DNA of 15,908 nt from Planctomycetia bacterium. Its GTDB lineage: Bacteria > Planctomycetota > UBA1135 > GCA-002686595. The notes under the pieces were generated by a model. It was not told the origin of the DNA and made no database searches. It saw only the letters and a list, made by a program, of their open reading frames with translations. Within the stretch, counting starts at the first letter, position 1; every line of letters starts with the position of its first letter. The stretch covers positions 1-15,908 of the forward strand of contig SXKQ01000141.1 of assembly GCA_005778045.1 (NCBI GenBank), given 5' to 3'. The position numbers and the translations under genes are program-made. Shown here one piece after another: positions 4,589 through 15,362 of this stretch.

Positions 4589-5086
4589 ATGGACTCGCAG
4601 ATCCACTTCGCGCTGGCGGTCGCGCTGCTTCCGACGCTCGGGCTGTGCCTCGCCGCGCTCTCGCTCGTGCTCGTCGCACGCGGGCGCCTGGCAGGACGTG
4701 TGGGGCCGGTCGTGGCGAGTGAGCGCGCCTCGCGGCTCTGGCTGCGCTCTGCGCTGACGTTCACGGCGCTGCCGGTGGCCGCGGTGATCGTGCACTGGGA
4801 AGATCTGCCGGCAGCGCTGGCGCTGGCCTCGCTCGCGGTGTCCGTGGCGCTCTTCGTCGCCAGCCCGCTGGCGCAGGACGCGGACGTCGGAGAGCGTGGC
4901 GTGCGGCGTGGCTGGAGCGCGCGCGAGTTTGCGCAGCTCGAGGAATGGCGGCTGACGGGCGAGCACTTGCGCTGGCGCTTGCGCAGCGAGTGGTTCGCGT
5001 GTCGGGTGCCCGTCGAGCTGCAAGCGAGCGTGCGTACGCGCCTGCAGGCTGTCTGTCCCGATCGTGAGAGCCCGTTTCGCGACTAG
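4589..5086 (+). CDS. Hypothetical small membrane protein
   Basis: I do not recognise this 165-aa protein. Hydrophobic segments lie at about 7-30, 52-67 and 72-92, which predicts three membrane helices. They are followed by a charged, Trp- and Arg-rich soluble tail of about 70 residues containing EFAQLEEWRLTGEHLRWRLR, probably helical. It starts 45 nt after the U32 stop, without a Shine-Dalgarno but with a -10-like TAGACT nearby. Its TAG stop overlaps the TAG stop of the convergent kinase-like gene on the same four bases. Codon use looks like that of neighbouring genes, and the hydrophobic pattern makes it more than a chance frame. Confidence 0.65.
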   Translation: MDSQIHFALAVALLPTLGLCLAALSLVLVARGRLAGRVGPVVASERASRLWLRSALTFTALPVAAVIVHWEDLPAALALASLAVSVALFVASPLAQDADVGERGVRRGWSAREFAQLEEWRLTGEHLRWRLRSEWFACRVPVELQASVRTRLQAVCPDRESPFRD

Positions 5087-5916
5087 CGTGTCGCTCCGGC
5101 TCGCGCGAACGGTCGCCAGTCCCACTCCGGCGGGACCTTCGCTCCGCCGCGCGCGTTGCGGCGCGCGACGAGCTCGCCGCGATGCGCCGCGGCCTTCGGC
5201 AGCAGCCTCGTCAGCTCGATGGGTACGCCTTGCGCGTCCCGCTCGCGCGCATAGAGCCGGATCCAGCGCCCGAGCTCGTCGGCGGTGAACAGCGTGACAG
5301 CATCGAGGAACAGGCATCCGAGATCGTAGGCGACGTCGCGGCAAGGCCGCGCATAGGGCGCATGCCAAGCATCGAGGAAGCACAGCTCCCGTTCGTCGGT
5401 GCCGGCAGGGTCGCGGCCGACGACCACGTTGCGCAGGAAGAGATCGCGGTGCACGAAGTGCAGCGCATGCAGGCGCGCGACTTCCCGCGCGAGCTCCTCG
5501 ATCCAGCGCGCGCGATCGAGCGGGTCGGCGACAGCGAGCGCGTCGGGGAGCGGGCGATGCTCAGGCAGCGGGGCGAGGACGAGGAGTTGGTAGCGCACGA
5601 GGGCGCCGCGCACCAGCACGCAAGAAGCGAGGGGCTGTGGAGCGCGGAACAGGCGCTCGCGCAGCCACTGCAGGTTGCGCGCCTCGCGCTCGCGCGGCAG
5701 GGGCAGTCCGGCGAGTCGACGCAGGCTGTAGCGCCAGCGCGCCGAGCCGGGCAGGTGGTCTCCCTTGAGCCACAGGTGCCGATTTGCGAGCTCACGCAGG
5801 CCACCGAGGACGAGTCGATCGCGCTGGGCGGCCAGCACGACATGGGCCAGCTCCGCGACCAAGCCGGGCCATTCCTCGTGCCCCACGAGCGAACCTTCGG
5901 CCGTCGTGACGCGCAC
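5083..5916 (-). CDS. WaaP/Kdo-kinase-like (lipopolysaccharide kinase family) protein
   Basis: Predicted small-molecule kinase of the protein-kinase-like fold, related to LPS-core sugar kinases (WaaP/InaA, KdkA). From the GTG at 5916 it is 277 aa. Visible landmarks are HLWLKGD (candidate ATP-binding Lys51), REREARNLQWL (Glu78, helix C), the catalytic loop HFVHRDLFLRN (His156-Arg157-Asp158, Asn163) and CFLDAWHAP (metal-binding Asp182, in place of DFG). The beginning is uncertain. A TTG at 5925 overlaps the methyltransferase stop with GGAG 8 nt upstream, and a GTG at 5886 has AAGG 7 nt upstream. The open frame continues to 6294, but only across the methyltransferase gene. It is last in the glycosylation operon, which suggests it phosphorylates a sugar on the glycan or its lipid carrier. 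A general small-molecule kinase is possible. Confidence 0.8.
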   Translation of the reverse strand: MRVTTAEGSLVGHEEWPGLVAELAHVVLAAQRDRLVLGGLRELANRHLWLKGDHLPGSARWRYSLRRLAGLPLPREREARNLQWLRERLFRAPQPLASCVLVRGALVRYQLLVLAPLPEHRPLPDALAVADPLDRARWIEELAREVARLHALHFVHRDLFLRNVVVGRDPAGTDERELCFLDAWHAPYARPCRDVAYDLGCLFLDAVTLFTADELGRWIRLYARERDAQGVPIELTRLLPKAAAHRGELVARRNARGGAKVPPEWDWRPFARAGATR

Positions 5917-5921
5917 GGGTT

Positions 5922-6545
5922 TCAACGAACTCGCTCCGCGACGAAGAATGTCTGCTGACTCAGGAAGCGCAGGCTGGTCGCGTACTCGAGCACGCGCGCT
6001 CCACAGTCGGAAACCAGCCCCTCGAGCTCCGCGCGGGAGCAGGCCGTGCGACCCTTGGCGCCTTCGCTGCGGCGCAGCCCGAGCCGCACGCGCAACGCGG
6101 GCCAGGAGGCGGAGTCCCAGAACGACGCGACCACGAGCCGGTCGCTCGCGCGCAGCAATTCGCGCAGCGTCGCGCGGCGTGCCTCGCGCTCCTGCAGGTG
6201 GTGCAGGAAGCGACAGCTCACCACGATGTCGAAGGAGCGCTCCTTGAAGGGCAGGGAGCTCACGCTCGCCTGCAGGGCCGCGCCCGGGAGACACTCGCGC
6301 GCGGAGGCGAGCATGGAGGCCGAGAGATCGAGCGACACGACGCGCTGGCCGAATCGCGCGAGCGTGGTCGACAGGCGTCCCGTTCCGCAGGGTGCGTCGA
6401 GGATGGGGCCTCGGGCCCCGTAGCGCTCGAGGAGGCGCGCGATGGTGCGCGGGTCACGACCGGCCGCGCGCGCGGTCGCGAAGCGCGGCCCGGCATAGTG
6501 CTCGCCGCTGCCCGGCGCGCTCCACTTGTCCGTGGCCTCGCTCAC
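5922..6545 (-). CDS. Class I SAM-dependent methyltransferase
   Basis: Soluble Rossmann-fold methyltransferase of 207 aa. Motif I is ILDAPCGTGRLS (48-59), the acidic ribose-binding residue is Asp73 in VVSLDLS, the adenine-contact region is SVSSLPF (94-100), and FDIVVSCRFLHHL (105-117) is the post-II motif. It resembles UbiE/type-11 methyltransferases. It starts with GTG, and its first bases form a GTGA overlap with the stop of the upstream oligosaccharyltransferase-like gene, strong evidence of translational coupling. It also abuts or overlaps the start of the kinase-like gene. The substrate cannot be read from sequence; position suggests a sugar, lipid carrier or protein terminus in the glycosylation pathway. 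Confidence 0.9.
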   Translation of the reverse strand: MSEATDKWSAPGSGEHYAGPRFATARAAGRDPRTIARLLERYGARGPILDAPCGTGRLSTTLARFGQRVVSLDLSASMLASARECLPGAALQASVSSLPFKERSFDIVVSCRFLHHLQEREARRATLRELLRASDRLVVASFWDSASWPALRVRLGLRRSEGAKGRTACSRAELEGLVSDCGARVLEYATSLRFLSQQTFFVAERVR

Positions 6546-8818
6546 GGCACCTGCACGACGCGGCCCTCGAGCACGCTGGCCTCGGGAATCGTGAGCGTCC
6601 CGCGCTCACTCCCGATGCGCCACGTGGCGCGCACGAGAGTCGCGTCACCGTTGGACTCGGTCGAATAGGGCACGCGGAACGTGATCCGCTGGTCGTCGCC
6701 GAGGCGTGCGCTGGCGCGCCACGGCACGCGATAGCGACTGGCGGCGAAGTCCAGCTTGATCTCCAGCTCGACGTCCGCGCCGCGCGGCCCGAGAACCTCG
6801 ACCTTCGCGCCCTGTACGTGCTCCCAGACGAAGGCCACGGGGAAGCGCAGCCCGGTGACCGGATCGAGGTGACGCGGATCGCGCTGGGGGGAGACGTGCA
6901 CGAGTCGCAGGAAGCCCGGAGCCTCGGGCTGGTCGTGGATCGGCACCCCATTGGGCAGCACGGCCGTGCCGTTGAACAGCAGACGCGAAGCCAGCGTGGC
7001 GTACCAGCGATCCGCGAGCACGAGATGACCCTGCGAGCCCTCGCGCAGCAGCTGCTCTCGGCGCTCCGGCGCGGCGATGCGACACATCGAGGGGACGAGC
7101 TGCAGCAGCGTCGCGGGAGCGAAGACAAACCGCACGTGACGGCGCACGAGCAGCTCGCGCGCCTCCGTCAGGTCCTCGCCGAGGAAGAAGCGCGCCGGGT
7201 CCTTGTAGCTGTCGACGCCGATGTAGCTGCCGAAGTTCGTCGCGACGCTCGGGGCGGCCGCGGCCCACTCGATCACGTGACCGCGATCCCAGTGCGCGAG
7301 CACGCTCCAATCGTCGGCACCGCTCGTGCGCGAGCGGATCCACTCCAGCGCGATGCGCTCACCCGCCACGGGATCGAACGGTCCACCGAGCTGCGGATCG
7401 CGCGGCGACGAGAGCCGGCGCCACGCGGAACTGGCGCTCGGCCAGTGCGCAGCGAGCGCGAGCAACGCGCAGGACACGGCGAGCGTGCGCGAGCGAAAGC
7501 GCGCCGCGAGGTGCGCGGCGGCGAGCCCCAGCAGCACCGCCATCGGGATCGCGAGGGCATCCGCAAAACGACGCTGCTGCAGCGCCTGAGGAAGGAGCAG
7601 CGCGGTCGCGGCCACCCACGGCAGCAGCTCGTCTTCGCGCTGGCGGAAGGCTCGCAGCGCGGCCCAGCCGAGCGCGATCGGCACGAGCAGCACGCTGTAG
7701 CCGAGCGCGAGAAACAGCACGCCCTCTTCGGCTCGGCTGCCGACGAGCGGCATCGACTCCTGCACGCTGTCCATGAAGCGATCGACGCGCGCGACCCAGT
7801 CGAAGCCCTCGGCAATGCCGCGCGCCGGCGCGAGCTCGAGCGCCCAGCCAAGCGAGGCGCTCGAGGCGAGCGTGACGAGCGCCAGCGCGGGGTAGAGCTG
7901 CGACGCGCGTGTGCCCTGCGCCAGCGAGCGATGCCACAGCGGCACGAACACGAGCGCTCCAAGCGCGAACTCGGCGCAGTGGAACCACGAGAGATTCACG
8001 ACCATCCACGGGAACTCCGCTCGCCAAGGGCTGGCGAGGACGGCTGGCAGGAGCACCAGTGCGGCGGCGCCGTGCATCGCGACCCCCAACGGGGCCAGTC
8101 CAGGCAAGTCGGTGCACGAGCGACGCCAGAGCATCCAGCCCAGCACCAGCTGCAGCTCGAGCACATAGAGCAGCGAAGCGACCCACGAACCGACGAGCAG
8201 GCCACACAGTGCGCCGAGGAGCGCACCCCAGACGAGCGAGCGTCGCGGGCTCGCGAGCTCGGTCGGTCGCAGGGCCTGCGAGAGCACCAGCAAGCTCGCT
8301 CCCGCGAGCAACGAGACCCATGCATGATGGTCGCCGGTGCCGACCACGCTGTAGTTGATCGAGCCGCGGCACAGGGCGACGCCGACGCCTGCGACGAACG
8401 CGGCCAGCAGTCCGCCCATGCGCCACGCCGCGCACGCGGCGAGGAGCGCGCCGAGGACACCGAACACCCGCGGGGCGCTCGCCGTCGCGCGCTCGATCCA
8501 GCGCCAGCGCGCCTCGGGTTCGGCCGGTGCGAATGGTGCGAGCGCGGCCGCCAGAAATCCGTCGTAGTAGGGCGGCCACGGAATCGGAGCGCCCTCCGGG
8601 TAGTTCATGCGCGGGTCCGTCGCAGCGACCGCACCTTCCGCCATGGCGCGTTCGACGCGCCGCGCATGGTAGAGCCCGTCAGGATCGCGCGAGAACCACG
8701 CGCTGCCCTCGTTCGAGTAGGGATGCTTCAGCCCCTCGACGCTGCGCGGCAGCCACGCGAGCACGCCGACGAAGGCGAGGATCGCGACGAGCCAGAGGGG
8801 GCGGAGGCGGGCGGCCAT
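6542..8818 (-). CDS. STT3/AglB-like oligosaccharyltransferase, paralogue A
   Basis: Large membrane protein (758 aa) predicted to transfer a lipid-linked glycan to protein on the outer face of the inner membrane. About 12 hydrophobic helices fill residues 8-460, followed by a soluble domain. STT3 landmarks are RDPDGLYHARR (Asp45/Asp47, first catalytic acidic loop), GDHHAW (Asp163, His165, the archaeal D-x-H metal site) and SVQE (351-354, the SVxE motif of external loop 5). HWDRG (509-513) stands where WWDYG is expected. The C-terminal domain has FLRLVHVSP, WEHVQGA (665-671) and VPYST (716-720), all typical of archaeal AglB. The DxxK motif position reads T570...Q573, so it is lost. The start is ATG 8818; GTG 8824 is an alternative. 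It lies 46 nt downstream of paralogue B. Confidence 0.86.
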   Translation of the reverse strand: MAARLRPLWLVAILAFVGVLAWLPRSVEGLKHPYSNEGSAWFSRDPDGLYHARRVERAMAEGAVAATDPRMNYPEGAPIPWPPYYDGFLAAALAPFAPAEPEARWRWIERATASAPRVFGVLGALLAACAAWRMGGLLAAFVAGVGVALCRGSINYSVVGTGDHHAWVSLLAGASLLVLSQALRPTELASPRRSLVWGALLGALCGLLVGSWVASLLYVLELQLVLGWMLWRRSCTDLPGLAPLGVAMHGAAALVLLPAVLASPWRAEFPWMVVNLSWFHCAEFALGALVFVPLWHRSLAQGTRASQLYPALALVTLASSASLGWALELAPARGIAEGFDWVARVDRFMDSVQESMPLVGSRAEEGVLFLALGYSVLLVPIALGWAALRAFRQREDELLPWVAATALLLPQALQQRRFADALAIPMAVLLGLAAAHLAARFRSRTLAVSCALLALAAHWPSASSAWRRLSSPRDPQLGGPFDPVAGERIALEWIRSRTSGADDWSVLAHWDRGHVIEWAAAAPSVATNFGSYIGVDSYKDPARFFLGEDLTEARELLVRRHVRFVFAPATLLQLVPSMCRIAAPERREQLLREGSQGHLVLADRWYATLASRLLFNGTAVLPNGVPIHDQPEAPGFLRLVHVSPQRDPRHLDPVTGLRFPVAFVWEHVQGAKVEVLGPRGADVELEIKLDFAASRYRVPWRASARLGDDQRITFRVPYSTESNGDATLVRATWRIGSERGTLTIPEASVLEGRVVQVP

Positions 8819-8829
8819 GCTCACGCGTC

Positions 8830-8835
8830 ATGCTA
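8830..8835 (-). promoter_or_regulatory. TAGCAT -10-like hexamer before paralogue A
   Basis: On the minus strand TAGCAT lies 11 nt before the ATG at 8818 (5 nt before the alternative GTG at 8824), inside the 46-nt gap between the two STT3-like genes. It may be a secondary promoter within the operon. No good -35 is visible. Confidence 0.28.
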
Positions 8836-8864
8836 TCGAGCGATGGGCAGCGCTCCCACGAGCC

Positions 8865-11156
8865 TCACCGGACCACGACGGTGTTTCCCGCCACCACGTC
8901 CGCCTCGCCGATCAGGACCTCGAGCGCTCGCGAGCCGAGCTGCACCCGCAGCGGCCCGCGTGCGAGCGTGTCCCCGTTGGGAGCGTCGGTCGAGTAGGGA
9001 ACGCGGAGGCGCGCGAGGCCGTCCTCACCGACGAGCGCACTGCCCACCCAGCTCCAGCGCTCCCCAGCCAGCGGACATTCGAGCTCGAGGCTCGCGTTGA
9101 CGCGCTCTCCCGCGGTCCCGCCGATCTCCAGCCGCGCGCCAGCAACCCGCTCCCAGATCCAGCCCGTCCGCACCGGTCCGTTGGTGTGTCGCACGGGCGG
9201 CGCGAAGGGCAGGAAGCTCGGCGACACATGCACGAGCCGCAGGAAATCGAGGGAATCGCCGACCAGCCCGCGTTGCTCGAGGCTCGCCACGCGTCCGCCC
9301 ATCATCAGCCGACCGGCGAGCGTGTCGAGGAAGCGCTGGGAGGTGAACACGCTGCCTTCGCGCGGGATCAGCAAGTACGAGCGCCGCTCCTCGGAACGCA
9401 GCAGGCGCAGCATGACCTCGAGGTCCTTGGCGAAGTCGCCCGGCAAGAGCACGTGACGAGCGTTGCGCCGTTCGAGCAACTCCTCCGCCGCGCGCAGGTC
9501 CGACTCGAGGAAGAAGCGCCACGGATCGAGGTAGCTGTCGGCGCCGAGGTAGCTGCCGAAGTTGGTGGCGATTGAAGGTCGATCCGCGATCCACTCGATC
9601 GCATGGCCGTGATCCCACGAGGCGAGCACGGCCTCGTCACCCGCGGGGAACGAGCCCAGCCGCTCGTACAACGCGCGCTTCTCGCGCGCCGGATCGCGCC
9701 CGTCTGCATTCCATGAGCGTTCCGCACGCTGCTGTGCCAGCGCTAGGGTGGGCCATCCGGAGAGCAGGGCCAGTCCGAGGCCGAGCGACGACGCGAGGCC
9801 CTGAGCAGGGCTGACGAGGCGCTCGACGAGCGCTGCGGTCGGCACGGCGAGTACGAGCGCCAGCGGGACTCCGAAGGCATCCGCGAAGCGGCGCTGGGCG
9901 AGGGCCTGCAGCAAGAGCGCGGGGAAGAGCACGCAGACATACGCCAGATCGACGCGCCGCTTGCGCCATGCATCGCGGACGAGCCACAGCCACGCGATGG
10001 GGGCGAGCAGCGCGGCGTACCCCAACATGCTGGTGGCCACGCCCACGCCTCCGATCGGACCCCACAGCATGGGCTGGGATTCCGTGATGAACGCCATGAA
10101 CTCGTTCGAGCGCGCGGCCCAGGCGAAGCCTTCGCGGACGGCGCGGGCCAGCGAGAAGTCTCCGAAGGCGAGGCTCGCCGCGAGCACCACCAGCGCACCA
10201 GCCACGATCCACGGCCAGCGTGTGCGCAGCCTGTCGCTCGCTCGCAGGAGCGGCACGAACACGAGCGCGCCGAGCAGCGGGTGAGCGAGGTGCAACCAGG
10301 AGAGGTTCACCATCATCCACGGCTCGACGCTCCGCCAGGGGCTCGAAAGAACAGCCGGCGCGATGCCCACGGCCCACGCCAGGTGCAGGGCGAGCCCGAG
10401 GGCTGGAAGCCCGCGGTGGGGAGTCCGCGCATGCGCCAGCAGTGCGATCCCGAGCGCAACTTCGAGCAGGACCGCGTAGACCAGTCCGCCGACCCAGGAG
10501 CCGACGAGCAGGGCGCAGAGCGTTCCGAGCGCAACGCCATGGCGTATCGAAATGCGTGGATCCGCGAGCTTGAGCGCCTCGAGCGCATCCGCGCCGATGC
10601 ACGTGATGGCGGCCAGCAACATCACGACCCACGCATGGTGGTCGCCATTGCCGACGGCGCTGTACTGCAGGGATGCGCCGAGCAGTGCGTACGTTCCTCC
10701 GGCGAGTGCGGCCGCACACAGCCGCTCGCTGTCCGCTCGCGAGCGCGTGAGTTTCCAGGCAGTGAGCGCGAGCAGCACGCTCGTCACGGCGGCGAACACG
10801 GCCGGCAGGACGGCGACGCGTCGCTCGATGTGGAGCTGGCGCTGCGTCGCGTCCGCGGGAGCCAGCGGCTTGCACGCAGCCCACGTCACGTACGTGTAGT
10901 AGGGTGGCCAAGGAACAAGCGCGCCTTGGGGCGCGTTCATGCGCGCGTCGGTCTCGGCCGGTGGCAGCCCCTCGTCCAGCGCTCGCTCGGCGCGCCGCAT
11001 GTGGTAGAGCGAGTCCGGATCCAGCGTGAACCAGCCCGCCGCGGCCTGCCCCTGCACGCGTGCGTGGCGCAAGTCGCAGGTCTCCCGCAGCACGAGCGCG
11101 AGCAGCGCCACGCAGGCGAGCAGCACCAGCAATCCTCGTCGCGCGCGCCGTTCCAT
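8865..11156 (-). CDS. STT3/AglB-like oligosaccharyltransferase, paralogue B
   Basis: First gene of the minus-strand operon, 763 aa, with the same layout as paralogue A: about 12 membrane helices to residue 470, then a soluble domain. Catalytic landmarks are LDPDSLYHMRRAE (Asp46/Asp48), GNGDHHAW (Asp172, His174) and FITE (356-359; Glu359 at the SVxE/TIxE position). SWDHG (513-517) replaces WWDYG. DFAK (Asp574, Lys577) lies about 60 residues further on, exactly where archaeal enzymes carry the DxxK motif. The C-terminal domain has FLRLVHVSP, WERVAGA (668-674) and VPYST (719-723). Together these argue for a true AglB-type enzyme rather than a generic GT-C glycosyltransferase or PMT-type mannosyltransferase. 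The ATG has no Shine-Dalgarno but TAGCAT 9 nt upstream. The glycan and acceptor sequon are unknown. Confidence 0.88.
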   Translation of the reverse strand: MERRARRGLLVLLACVALLALVLRETCDLRHARVQGQAAAGWFTLDPDSLYHMRRAERALDEGLPPAETDARMNAPQGALVPWPPYYTYVTWAACKPLAPADATQRQLHIERRVAVLPAVFAAVTSVLLALTAWKLTRSRADSERLCAAALAGGTYALLGASLQYSAVGNGDHHAWVVMLLAAITCIGADALEALKLADPRISIRHGVALGTLCALLVGSWVGGLVYAVLLEVALGIALLAHARTPHRGLPALGLALHLAWAVGIAPAVLSSPWRSVEPWMMVNLSWLHLAHPLLGALVFVPLLRASDRLRTRWPWIVAGALVVLAASLAFGDFSLARAVREGFAWAARSNEFMAFITESQPMLWGPIGGVGVATSMLGYAALLAPIAWLWLVRDAWRKRRVDLAYVCVLFPALLLQALAQRRFADAFGVPLALVLAVPTAALVERLVSPAQGLASSLGLGLALLSGWPTLALAQQRAERSWNADGRDPAREKRALYERLGSFPAGDEAVLASWDHGHAIEWIADRPSIATNFGSYLGADSYLDPWRFFLESDLRAAEELLERRNARHVLLPGDFAKDLEVMLRLLRSEERRSYLLIPREGSVFTSQRFLDTLAGRLMMGGRVASLEQRGLVGDSLDFLRLVHVSPSFLPFAPPVRHTNGPVRTGWIWERVAGARLEIGGTAGERVNASLELECPLAGERWSWVGSALVGEDGLARLRVPYSTDAPNGDTLARGPLRVQLGSRALEVLIGEADVVAGNTVVVR

Positions 11157-11165
11157 GGGCGAGTC

Positions 11166-11194
11166 ATGCTACGTCCTGCACGCTCCGCGCTGAA
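11166..11194 (-). promoter_or_regulatory. Candidate promoter of the glycosylation operon
   Basis: On the minus strand TTCAGC (11194-11189) and TAGCAT (11171-11166) are separated by 17 bp, matching consensus at 3/6 and 4/6. The start would fall about 3 nt before the paralogue B ATG, so the transcript would be almost leaderless. Its -35 overlaps that of the divergent M16 promoter. Confidence 0.4.
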
Positions 11195-11218
11195 CCAGAG
11201 TGTGTCGCTGGCTACAAT
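11190..11218 (+). promoter_or_regulatory. Candidate promoter of the M16 protease operon
   Basis: CTGAAC (11190-11195) and TACAAT (11213-11218) are spaced by 17 bp; the -10 matches sigma70 consensus at 5/6. It predicts a leader of about 27 nt containing the Shine-Dalgarno AGGGA at 11241-11245, six bases before the ATG. This is the best promoter-like sequence in the window. Confidence 0.55.
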
Positions 11219-11251
11219 CCAGTCCCGTCTCTCGCCCCATAGGGAACCGCC

Positions 11252-14144
<2,893 letters not shown>

Positions 14145-14146
<2 letters not shown>

Positions 14147-14156: not shown

Positions 14157-15362
14157 ATGTTGCTCGCCTCGCTTGCTCTCTGCCTCGCGCAGACTGCGGA
14201 CCCCCTGAAAGAGCTGCTCCAGATGACGGCCTCGACGCCGTTCTTCAGCGCTCGCTACGACCTCACGACGACAACGAGCACCGAGCCGAGCGTGATCGAG
14301 ATCGACTACATCGCGCCTGACCGGCTGCGCTTCTCGCGTGCGAGCAGGGCGCGCTCCACAACGATGTGGGCCGTGGGCGGCGTGCTGTCGGTGCGCTCGA
14401 CGGAAGGCGGCACTCCGCTGCACGGCTCGGTCGATTGCAGTGGCGTGCACGCCGAGCTCGCTCCCGTCGAGACGCTGCTTCGTGCAGCGATTCCGGCCGT
14501 GGAGCCGCGCGGTGAGCTGAAGCCCGCGCTCAGCTTCCGCTGGAACTTCGACGAGGCCGCCCAGAAGGCCAACTTCGGCATCGAGGCCGCGCTCGCTGAG
14601 GACATCACCACGCCGATGGGCTGGGTCGACACGCTGCGAGAGAAGGCCGCTGCGCCGCGGGCGGACGGAGGCCTGCTGCGCTTCTCGACCGACGGGCACT
14701 TCGAGCTCGCGCTCGACGCCTCGAACGGCATGCTGCGCGAGTTCAAGGGGCGCAGCCCCAAGGGCGAGATGACGCTGGCCCTGCGCGCCGCTCGCATGGA
14801 CTACGCGCCGCCTGTCGGCCTGTTCACAGTGTCGCCGCCGGTCGATGGCGCGAAGGATGTTTCCTTGGAGCTGCGTAGGACGGCGGCGCGCAGCCTCGAG
14901 GTCGGCATGCGTCGGCGCATCTTCCGCGCATTCGCGGCCGACAAGGGCCCGCTCGTAGGCACGGGCGACGAGCTCGCGGCAGCGCAGCAGTCCGCGCGCG
15001 GCGTCCTGCGCGCCCTGCACGTCCTGACGCTCGCCCCGGTGGTGGAAACGATGCTGCCGCGCGCCGGCGCGATGAACGAGGGCGTGGTCAAGCGCCTCGT
15101 GCAACTACGTGACTCCGGCAAGGCCGCCGAGGAGCTGGCAGCGGCTCGCGCTCGCGAGACCGAACTCCTGCGCGCCAATCTCGGCAAGCTCGAGTCCCAG
15201 ATGCTCGAGGGCAGCGCGCTGCCGCCCGGCTGCGAGAACCTGCCTCATGGCGCGGCGATGCTGTCGCTCGAGTCCGAAGTGCTCAAGGCGCTCTTCACCG
15301 AGCGCGTCGTCGACCCGCTGGTGCGCTCCTTCGAGGCCGCCTGCGACGCCAAGCTGCGCTGA
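14157..15362 (+). CDS. Secreted protein of unknown function, LolA-like N-terminal part
   Basis: A 401-aa protein with a short hydrophobic leader (1-11) and likely signal cleavage near CLAQ-TADP, so probably periplasmic. There is no proper lipobox. Residues 25-230 resemble LolA/LolB-type lipid-binding sheets in pattern: FSARYDLTTTT, then IEIDYIAPDRLRFSR, and later HFELALDASNGMLREF. The last 150 residues are helical and charged, with an Ala/Glu/Arg-rich stretch at about 318-350 that could form a coiled coil. It is translationally linked to the M16 lipoprotease by the AGGAGG at that gene's stop, which suggests a shared envelope role. The LolA resemblance is a visual impression, not an alignment; only secretion and the operon link are firm. 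Confidence 0.82.
   Translation: MLLASLALCLAQTADPLKELLQMTASTPFFSARYDLTTTTSTEPSVIEIDYIAPDRLRFSRASRARSTTMWAVGGVLSVRSTEGGTPLHGSVDCSGVHAELAPVETLLRAAIPAVEPRGELKPALSFRWNFDEAAQKANFGIEAALAEDITTPMGWVDTLREKAAAPRADGGLLRFSTDGHFELALDASNGMLREFKGRSPKGEMTLALRAARMDYAPPVGLFTVSPPVDGAKDVSLELRRTAARSLEVGMRRRIFRAFAADKGPLVGTGDELAAAQQSARGVLRALHVLTLAPVVETMLPRAGAMNEGVVKRLVQLRDSGKAAEELAAARARETELLRANLGKLESQMLEGSALPPGCENLPHGAAMLSLESEVLKALFTERVVDPLVRSFEAACDAKLR

What the first reader, a model, noticed from the sequence alone, without database searches (positions are those of the whole stretch)
5083..11156. Apparent bacterial operon with two archaeal-type AglB/STT3 oligosaccharyltransferases, a methyltransferase and a sugar-kinase-like protein
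Seen: four minus-strand genes with gaps of 46 nt, a GTGA overlap, and an overlap or near-abutment. Both large proteins carry the DPD loop, GDHH, an SVxE-position Glu, xWDxG, and the C-terminal FLRLVHVSP / WExVxGA / VPYST signature typical of archaeal AglB. Known: bacterial N-glycosylation is best described for PglB of Campylobacterota. Inferred: a protein glycosylation system in which the glycan or its carrier is methylated and phosphorylated. I know of no described system with this gene set, but I cannot search.
Basis: partly seen in the sequence, partly recalled or inferred. Interest (0 to 1): 0.78.

Follow-up and report, generated by a model that had tools for sequence, protein, structure and literature searches.

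The report
Twin archaeal-type glycan transferases in planctomycetes
A planctomycete carries two side-by-side copies of an enzyme that archaea use to attach sugar chains to proteins, with an altered target-reading site, sitting upstream of an older pair of genes that probably phosphorylate and methylate a surface sugar chain.

Summary

(1) The acceptor-reading motif, called strictly conserved in N-oligosaccharyltransferases (WWDYG), is rewritten to xW(D/other)xGH: the first Trp is absent in 120 of 120 homologues examined (the best 120 of 157 hits), the Asp present in 60 of 120. OST1 and OST2 keep the Asp; two further paralogue clades have lost it. The acceptor may not be an ordinary N-x-S/T sequon; a sequon count was null. 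(2) The methyltransferase-kinase pair is an older module: adjacent in 59 of 81 family genomes, 24 of them without any OST match. An OST lies next to the methyltransferase in 13 genomes of 5 genera; one relative keeps the locus without OSTs. WaaP-type kinase family and WbdD-like gene order suggest phosphorylation or methyl-phosphate capping of a surface glycan. Whether that glycan is the OST donor is unproven.

No paper describing this system turned up in the library searches made.

The parts
8865..11156 (-). OST1: STT3/AglB-class membrane oligosaccharyltransferase, 763 aa
6542..8824 (-). OST2: paralogous STT3/AglB-class oligosaccharyltransferase, 760 aa (GTG start; ATG 6 nt downstream)
5922..6545 (-). 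MT: class I SAM-dependent methyltransferase, 207 aa, overlaps OST2 stop (GTGA)
   Evidence: Methyltransf_11 E 2.4e-18; SAM motif DxPCGxGR, each named residue in 31-34 of 34 rows
5083..5925 (-). KIN: Kdo/WaaP-family kinase, 280 aa from TTG overlapping MT stop (TTGA)
   Evidence: PF06293 E 5e-10, 39.6 bits against cut-off 21.3; K53, E80, N165, D184 in 33/33 rows, D160 30/33; profile best PDB hit WaaP 6dfl E 2e-7
11013..11021 (-). OST1 first DxD motif (D46-P-D48), metal ligand loop EL1
   Evidence: D48 60/60 rows with a letter there, one of 61 rows gapped; aligns to the G-N-D47 region of AfAglB
10635..10646 (-). OST1 GDHH (D172, H174), second metal motif EL2
   Evidence: D172 61/61, H174 60/61; aligns to DHH of AfAglB
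9603..9620 (-). OST1 SWDHGH in place of WWDYGH (acceptor +2 pocket)
   Evidence: gapless alignment of the profile to VISWWDYGH of AfAglB; first Trp 0/61 and 0/120
7277..7294 (-). OST2 HWDRGH in place of WWDYGH
8877..9140 (-). OST1 AglB_L1 C-terminal peripheral domain (residues 673-760)
   Evidence: Pfam PF18079, 39 bits, cut-off 23.6
6554..6811 (-). OST2 AglB_L1 domain (residues 672-757)
   Evidence: Pfam PF18079, 25.6 bits, cut-off 23.6
11252..14146 (+). divergent M16 peptidase: left border of the cluster, also next to MT in the OST-less locus of G011
   Evidence: PF00675/PF05193; L073
4589..5086 (+). small membrane protein (no Pfam match) convergent with KIN: right border

Best explanation
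OST1 and OST2 are two paralogous AglB-class oligosaccharyltransferases in the cytoplasmic membrane of a planctomycete. Each takes a preassembled glycan from a polyprenyl carrier, using the metal site (Asp48, Asp172, His174) and the loop-5 Glu359 (OST1 numbering), and transfers it to a side chain of exported protein held against the C-terminal domain. The acceptor-reading pocket has been rebuilt (xW-D-xGH instead of WWDYG), and differently in each paralogue clade, so the paralogues probably serve different acceptor sites. MT and KIN are an older two-gene module that phosphorylates and methylates a sugar of a surface glycan, by the logic of WbdD (kinase plus methyltransferase on a lipid-linked glycan) or of WaaP on lipopolysaccharide core. 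OST2 joined it upstream, most simply once in the ancestor of genera g1, g5, g27 and g254 (g255 has the same OST2-MT junction but its MT is unplaced in the tree), and has been inherited with it since. The most economical reading is that the glycan handled by OST2, and by OST1 where present, carries that modification. Shown by sequence or structure: the enzyme class, the residues, the linkage, the matching trees for four genera. Inferred: transferase activity, donor, acceptor, and the link between MT-KIN and the transferred glycan.
For: Fold and domain matches to A. fulgidus AglB for both proteins. Catalytic residues nearly invariant in 61 OSTs, matching the roles given in PMC8342417 (passages). 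Purifying selection on all four genes. Conserved order in 6 of 7 genus loci and in G377. OST2 tree and MT-KIN tree agree on (g254,(g27,(g5,g1))). KIN keeps the kinase core residues and MT the SAM motif. MT gene then KIN gene is the same order as the MTase (1-210) and kinase (211-459) domains of WbdD (PMC3482155, passages), and WbdD His132-His133 align with His115-His116 of MT, invariant in 34 of 34 rows.
Against: MT-KIN is adjacent without any OST match in 24 of 59 genomes, so it does not need OSTs. 36 of 49 OST-positive genomes have no OST next to MT in the rows compared (one of them, G006, is cut at a contig end). The MT-KIN tree leaves g255 at an open fork outside the other OST2-bearing genera, on a third of the columns. 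11 of 13 genomes tested have WaaA, so the kinase may simply act on LPS (the nearest genome, G001, had none). WWDYG is not met and no N-x-S/T enrichment was seen in exported proteins. No glycosyltransferase gene other than the OSTs was recognised among the 10 window proteins scanned. The position of WbdD Arg203 holds Gln in MT, and WbdD's own paper notes His-His in NodS/RebM-type relatives too (passages).
Confidence: 0.5

Rival explanations
1. Two unlinked functions share an operon. The OSTs glycosylate exported proteins, while MT-KIN modifies lipopolysaccharide core (a Kdo/heptose kinase and a methyltransferase) and has nothing to do with the transferred glycan. The adjacency is an accident of insertion, kept by linked inheritance.
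For: MT-KIN without OST in 24 of 59 genomes, 17 genera; G011 keeps the pair without the OSTs; KIN's best solved relative is WaaP; WaaA in 11 of 13 genomes.
Against: The OST2-MT junction is found in five genera, with KIN beside it in four, although upstream context differs (M16 in g1, g5 and, across a contig break, g27; sulfatase-like plus PMT_2 in g254 and g255).
Confidence: 0.35
2. AglB-derived transferases with a changed acceptor: they use the same donor chemistry but attach the glycan to something other than N-x-S/T (another sequon, a hydroxy amino acid, or a non-protein acceptor). This does not exclude the best explanation; it narrows its acceptor step.
For: First Trp of WWDYG absent in 120 of 120 homologues and Asp present in 60 of 120; Asp lost in all 9 OST3 and all 4 OST4 rows while donor-site residues stay (one OST4 row has Gln for His174); PglB mutants in WWDYG are inactive (PMC3527161, passages); sequon count null.
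Against: OST1 and OST2 themselves keep Trp-Asp of the motif in 10 of 10 and 15 of 15 rows; the peptide-binding loop-5 Glu is invariant; the sequon test has little power.
Confidence: 0.3
3. Not oligosaccharyltransferases but a different GT-C enzyme (C-mannosyl, PMT or arabinosyl type) that resembles AglB.
Confidence: 0.05

Closest known systems
AglB-Long of Archaeoglobus fulgidus (3waj, 3wak, 5gmy, 7e9s)
   Same: GT-C membrane fold plus C-terminal domain and AglB_L1; D47/D161/H163/E360 equivalents present
   Different: bacterial host; 15-18% identity in the structural alignments; WWDYG rewritten to xWDxG; no clear DK motif in OST2; tandem pair next to MT-KIN
PglB of Campylobacter (3rce, 5ogl, 6gxc)
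   Same: single-subunit bacterial OST, same reaction class
WaaP/RfaP lipopolysaccharide core kinase (6dfl) and KdkA
   Same: PF06293 family, kinase core residues
   Different: KdkA and RfaP NCBIfam cut-offs not reached (30.9 of 142 and 15.6 of 170 bits)
WbdD of E. coli O9a (methyltransferase-kinase chain terminator)
   Same: methyltransferase followed by kinase; His-His of the phosphate site aligned
   Different: two separate genes; KIN's sequence is nearer WaaP than the WbdD kinase; Gln at the Arg203 position; linked to OSTs in some genera, and no ABC exporter gene was recognised beside it in the window

Membership tests
N-oligosaccharyltransferase (STT3/AglB/PglB) | GT-C membrane fold with AglB-type C-terminal domain | tested here: met
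N-oligosaccharyltransferase (STT3/AglB/PglB) | metal and catalytic residues of two DXD motifs and TIXE/SVSE Glu | tested here: met
   D48, D172, H174, E359 aligned to AfAglB: 60/60 (one row gapped), 61/61, 60/61, 61/61
N-oligosaccharyltransferase (STT3/AglB/PglB) | WWDYG motif that reads Ser/Thr at +2 | tested here: not met
   SWDHG and HWDRG in the window; first Trp 0/120, Asp 60/120 in homologues
N-oligosaccharyltransferase (STT3/AglB/PglB) | DK or MI motif | tested here: inconclusive
   Lys at the DK-like position in 7 of 10 OST1 rows with one extra residue before Met, no such Lys in 15 OST2 rows
N-oligosaccharyltransferase (STT3/AglB/PglB) | transfer of a lipid-linked glycan to Asn of N-x-S/T | not testable with these tools
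   only an indirect sequon count, null
TIGR04154 archaeosortase-associated STT3 | curated cut-off 450 bits | tested here: not met
   153.9 and 162.1 bits
PglB | closest sequence relationship among solved OSTs | tested here: not met
   profile hits AfAglB E 8e-23; no PglB listed at E 0.01
Kdo/WaaP kinase family (PF06293) | curated cut-off | tested here: met
   39.6 bits against 21.3; 27 of 27 members of A3 match at E 0.001
Kdo/WaaP kinase family (PF06293) | active kinase core residues | tested here: met
   K53, E80, N165, D184 33/33, D160 30/33
WbdD methyl-phosphate terminator | fused methyltransferase-kinase polypeptide | tested here: not met
   two overlapping genes
WbdD methyl-phosphate terminator | His132-His133 and Arg203 phosphate site | tested here: inconclusive
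   His-His aligned; position of Arg203 holds Gln, an Arg invariant in 22 of 22 rows lies four residues upstream
WbdD methyl-phosphate terminator | coiled-coil ruler and polymerase partner | not tested
   none run

The most novel reading that the evidence does not exclude
A bacterial protein-glycosylation system built on AglB-class transferases whose acceptor pocket no longer uses the WWDYG rule. Up to four paralogue lineages with differently rebuilt pockets divide different acceptor motifs among exported proteins. The glycan of the OST2 branch is capped by a split WbdD-like kinase and methyltransferase, giving a phosphorylated or methyl-phosphorylated protein glycan.
Probability: 0.2. Interest if true: 0.78.

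Novelty: new variant of a known kind. Interest (0 to 1): 0.52.

Why it matters
The WWDYG motif is described as strictly conserved in N-oligosaccharyltransferases (PMC3527161, passages), and its Trp-Trp-Asp part forms the pocket for the Ser/Thr of the site (PMC3703281, passages). A bacterial clade that keeps the catalytic centre but lacks the first Trp in every member examined, and the Asp in some paralogues, is a natural test of that rule and a possible source of transferases with other site preferences. The one planctomycete glycoprotein paper met in the searches describes an O-glycan (PMC5088730, passages), so which linkage these enzymes make is a directly testable question.

Tried and rejected
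Sequon test: observed/expected N-x-S/T in exported proteins was 1.03 in G377 (OST-positive, 79 proteins) and 1.04 in G011 (OST-free, 116 proteins). Null. In membrane proteins it was 1.09 against 0.88, but the reversed motif moved the same way (1.09 against 1.01), and I make nothing of it. The test used about 0.8 Mb of each genome, a home-made gene caller and a crude signal-peptide rule; 64 and 52 ambiguous proteins were left out of the counts.

Archaeal donor: I wanted archaeal AglB sequences for a tree. A plasmid search with OST2 found nothing at E 1, and the genome search would not centre on an archaeal plasmid, so archaeal origin was not tested here. PMC4973528 (passages) places a few bacterial homologues inside the euryarchaeal clade, with at least two transfers proposed.

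'Paralogues in one organism share one pocket type' (PMC3703281, passages): I looked for a breach. OST1 has a DxxK-like stretch and OST2 does not, but the Lys is kept in only 7 of 10 OST1 rows, so I do not claim a breach.

Tandem neighbours of OSTs in other genomes (L008, L048, L050, L052, L054) looked like second OSTs by length but match DUF5916. Sulfatase-like neighbours lack the CxPSR motif in 4 of 4 tested, so they were not taken as evidence of sulfated glycan. Rfam (gathering threshold) and tRNA scans of the window were empty. A promoter and terminator scan of 4900-11400 gave one weak promoter-like and five terminator-like sites (three of them overlapping), all inside OST1 or OST2, so operon structure rests on overlaps and conserved order only.
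Full report
What is in the window. The 15.9 kb window is planctomycete DNA. Its own assembly is not held, but a relative (L001/G001, MAG Erken-D4_bin-1070, titled uncultured planctomycete) carries the same locus with 86-98% protein identity. The finding covers four minus-strand genes between a divergent M16 peptidase (11252-14146) and a convergent small membrane protein (4589-5086): OST1, OST2, MT and KIN. All four are under purifying selection against L001 and L002 (dN/dS 0.165-0.267; the flanking U32 and M16 peptidases 0.078-0.136).

Catalytic centre kept, acceptor motif changed. In 61 OSTs from this order (one row, L008, from a named MAG not placed by handle), the residues that align with the AfAglB metal ligands and loop-5 Glu are D48 60/60 (one row gapped), D172 61/61, H174 60/61 and E359 61/61, with R423 61/61 (roles from PMC8342417 passages). 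The C-terminal WWDYG motif aligns without gaps to xWDxG. The first Trp is found in 0 of 61 rows and in 0 of the 120 homologues listed out of 157 hits, the window's own OST1 cluster among them: 118 by pattern, two (P0064, P0118) read by eye in the same output. The Asp is present in 60 of those 120 (59 by pattern, one by eye). By clade it is kept in OST1 10/10 and OST2 15/15, lost in OST3 0/9 and OST4 0/4, Ser in the g255 OST1-like row, and kept in 14 of 22 other rows. PMC3527161 (passages) calls the motif strictly conserved, with 15 inactive PglB variants in it; PMC3703281 (passages) assigns Trp-Trp-Asp to the Ser/Thr pocket. I therefore treat these proteins as an AglB-related variant and do not file them as canonical N-oligosaccharyltransferases.

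Paralogues. A quick-method tree of 61 rows, midpoint-rooted, gives an OST1 clade (g1, g5, g27; SH-aLRT 98), an OST2 clade (g1, g5, g27, g254, g255; 89), an OST3 clade (g1, g5, g252; 96) and an OST4 clade (g1, g5, g254; 99). The upstream OST of g255 is OST1-like by position but not placed inside the OST1 clade. Each of the 7 same-genus genomes has the tandem pair and at least one further copy elsewhere.

Does the set travel together? Within the genus, 6 of 7 loci show M16 | OST1-OST2-MT-KIN | small membrane protein (in L007 M16 is cut by the contig end), and the seventh (L004/G006) is cut inside MT. G377 (g5) has the same set. In G033 (g27) the parts lie on two contig ends, M16-OST1 and OST2-MT-KIN-small protein, which fits the same order but does not prove it. 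G364 (g255, the same contig as L009) has sulfatase-like, PMT_2, OST1-like, OST2, MT, then the contig ends. Four g254 genomes have sulfatase-like genes, PMT_2, other sequence of 0.7-3 kb (in L101 and L102 an opposite-strand methyltransferase-like frame), one OST2, MT, KIN.

Against this, over 81 genomes of the family, MT and KIN are adjacent (under 400 nt) in 59 (34 of 42 genera), and 24 of these 59 (17 genera) have no OST match. OST matches occur in 49 genomes, and next to MT in 13. Completeness of these assemblies is 64-93%, so some absences may be gaps. G011, sister of G377, has U32 ... small protein, KIN, MT, M16 with about 0.2 kb between MT and M16 and no OST match in two searches.

The MT-KIN tree (34 rows, midpoint root) gives (g13,(g254,(g27,((G011,G377),g1)))), the order of the OST2 tree for the four genera shared; g13 is OST-free. 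It leaves g255, with a third of its columns, at an open fork outside this group, whereas the OST2 tree puts g255 at the base of the OST2 clade. The simplest history is one joining of OST2 to an existing MT-KIN pair, co-inheritance, and loss of the OST pair in G011; other gain-loss orders, and a separate history for g255, are not excluded.

MT and KIN. KIN is a Kdo/WaaP-family kinase: 27 of 27 relatives match PF06293, and the kinase Lys, Glu, catalytic-loop Asn and Mg-binding Asp are in 33/33 rows. Its best solved relative is WaaP (E 2e-7), with the WbdD kinase far down the list, below many protein kinases, at 0.0019. MT is a generic class I methyltransferase by its PDB matches. WbdD of E. coli O9a has the same two activities in the same order and makes a methyl phosphate on a polyprenol-linked glycan (PMC3482155 passages); a methyltransferase-kinase with a different kinase does so in Klebsiella O7 (PMC11231755 passages). 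The 708-residue E. coli HS protein used as WbdD (annotated only as a methyltransferase) has the eight residues checked from that paper at their numbers. Profile alignment gives probability 90 for the MT domain with the His-His aligned but Gln at the Arg203 position, and 56 for the kinase. So 'works like WbdD' is possible and 'is a WbdD' is not claimed. WaaA in 11 of 13 genomes keeps an LPS-core role open; G001 and G006 were the two without.

Literature. Searches for oligosaccharyltransferase with planctomycete, AglB with planctomycete (75), N-glycosylation with planctomycete and STT3 (76), and bacterial OST, PglB, AglB or WWDYG terms listed no title or abstract describing AglB-type glycosylation in Planctomycetota; only the papers named in this report were opened, as passages. 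The library lacks most subscription papers. PMC4973528 (passages) mentions a few bacterial homologues within the euryarchaeal AglB clade.

Verdict. The four-gene 'system' is two modules with a long shared history in a few genera, and the acceptor chemistry is genuinely open.

Noticed in passing
L041, L042, L043, L045 (third OST paralogue of the genus): OST3 lies beside a convergent gene that in L043 is a type II/IV secretion ATPase (PF00437, PilT-like); L041 and L042 show a gene with a like start and length, L045 a frame cut by the contig end. Its Asp in the acceptor motif is replaced by Ser, Gly or Thr.
   Followed up: partly
L100-L104: In g254 and g255 the OST cluster is preceded by sulfatase-superfamily genes and a PMT_2-like GT-C gene, suggesting a larger surface-glycan cluster that the window lacks.
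   Followed up: partly
L051, L053, L111, L112, L114: In other genera of the family single OST homologues follow a membrane sulfatase-like protein with DUF3413 (Pfam on L051 and L053, similarity in the others).
   Followed up: partly
L008, L048, L050, L052, L054: In other genomes the gene upstream of the OST is a 660-730 aa protein with a partial DUF5916 match, function unknown to me.
   Followed up: partly
L003:16649-18924, and genes of like size in L005 and L006: Two genes sit between the small membrane protein and the U32 peptidase where the window has none: HDOD and pyridine nucleotide-disulphide oxidoreductase in L003 (Pfam run there only).
   Followed up: partly
window 14157-15362: 401 aa protein with a signal-like start, no Pfam match, fast evolving (36-90% identity), beside the M16 peptidase in 6 of 7 genus loci (L007 ends inside M16).
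   Followed up: no
L083, L075, L087: In three genera the MT-KIN pair follows genes of a molybdopterin xanthine-dehydrogenase-like enzyme (Pfam on L083; genes of like size in the others).
   Followed up: partly
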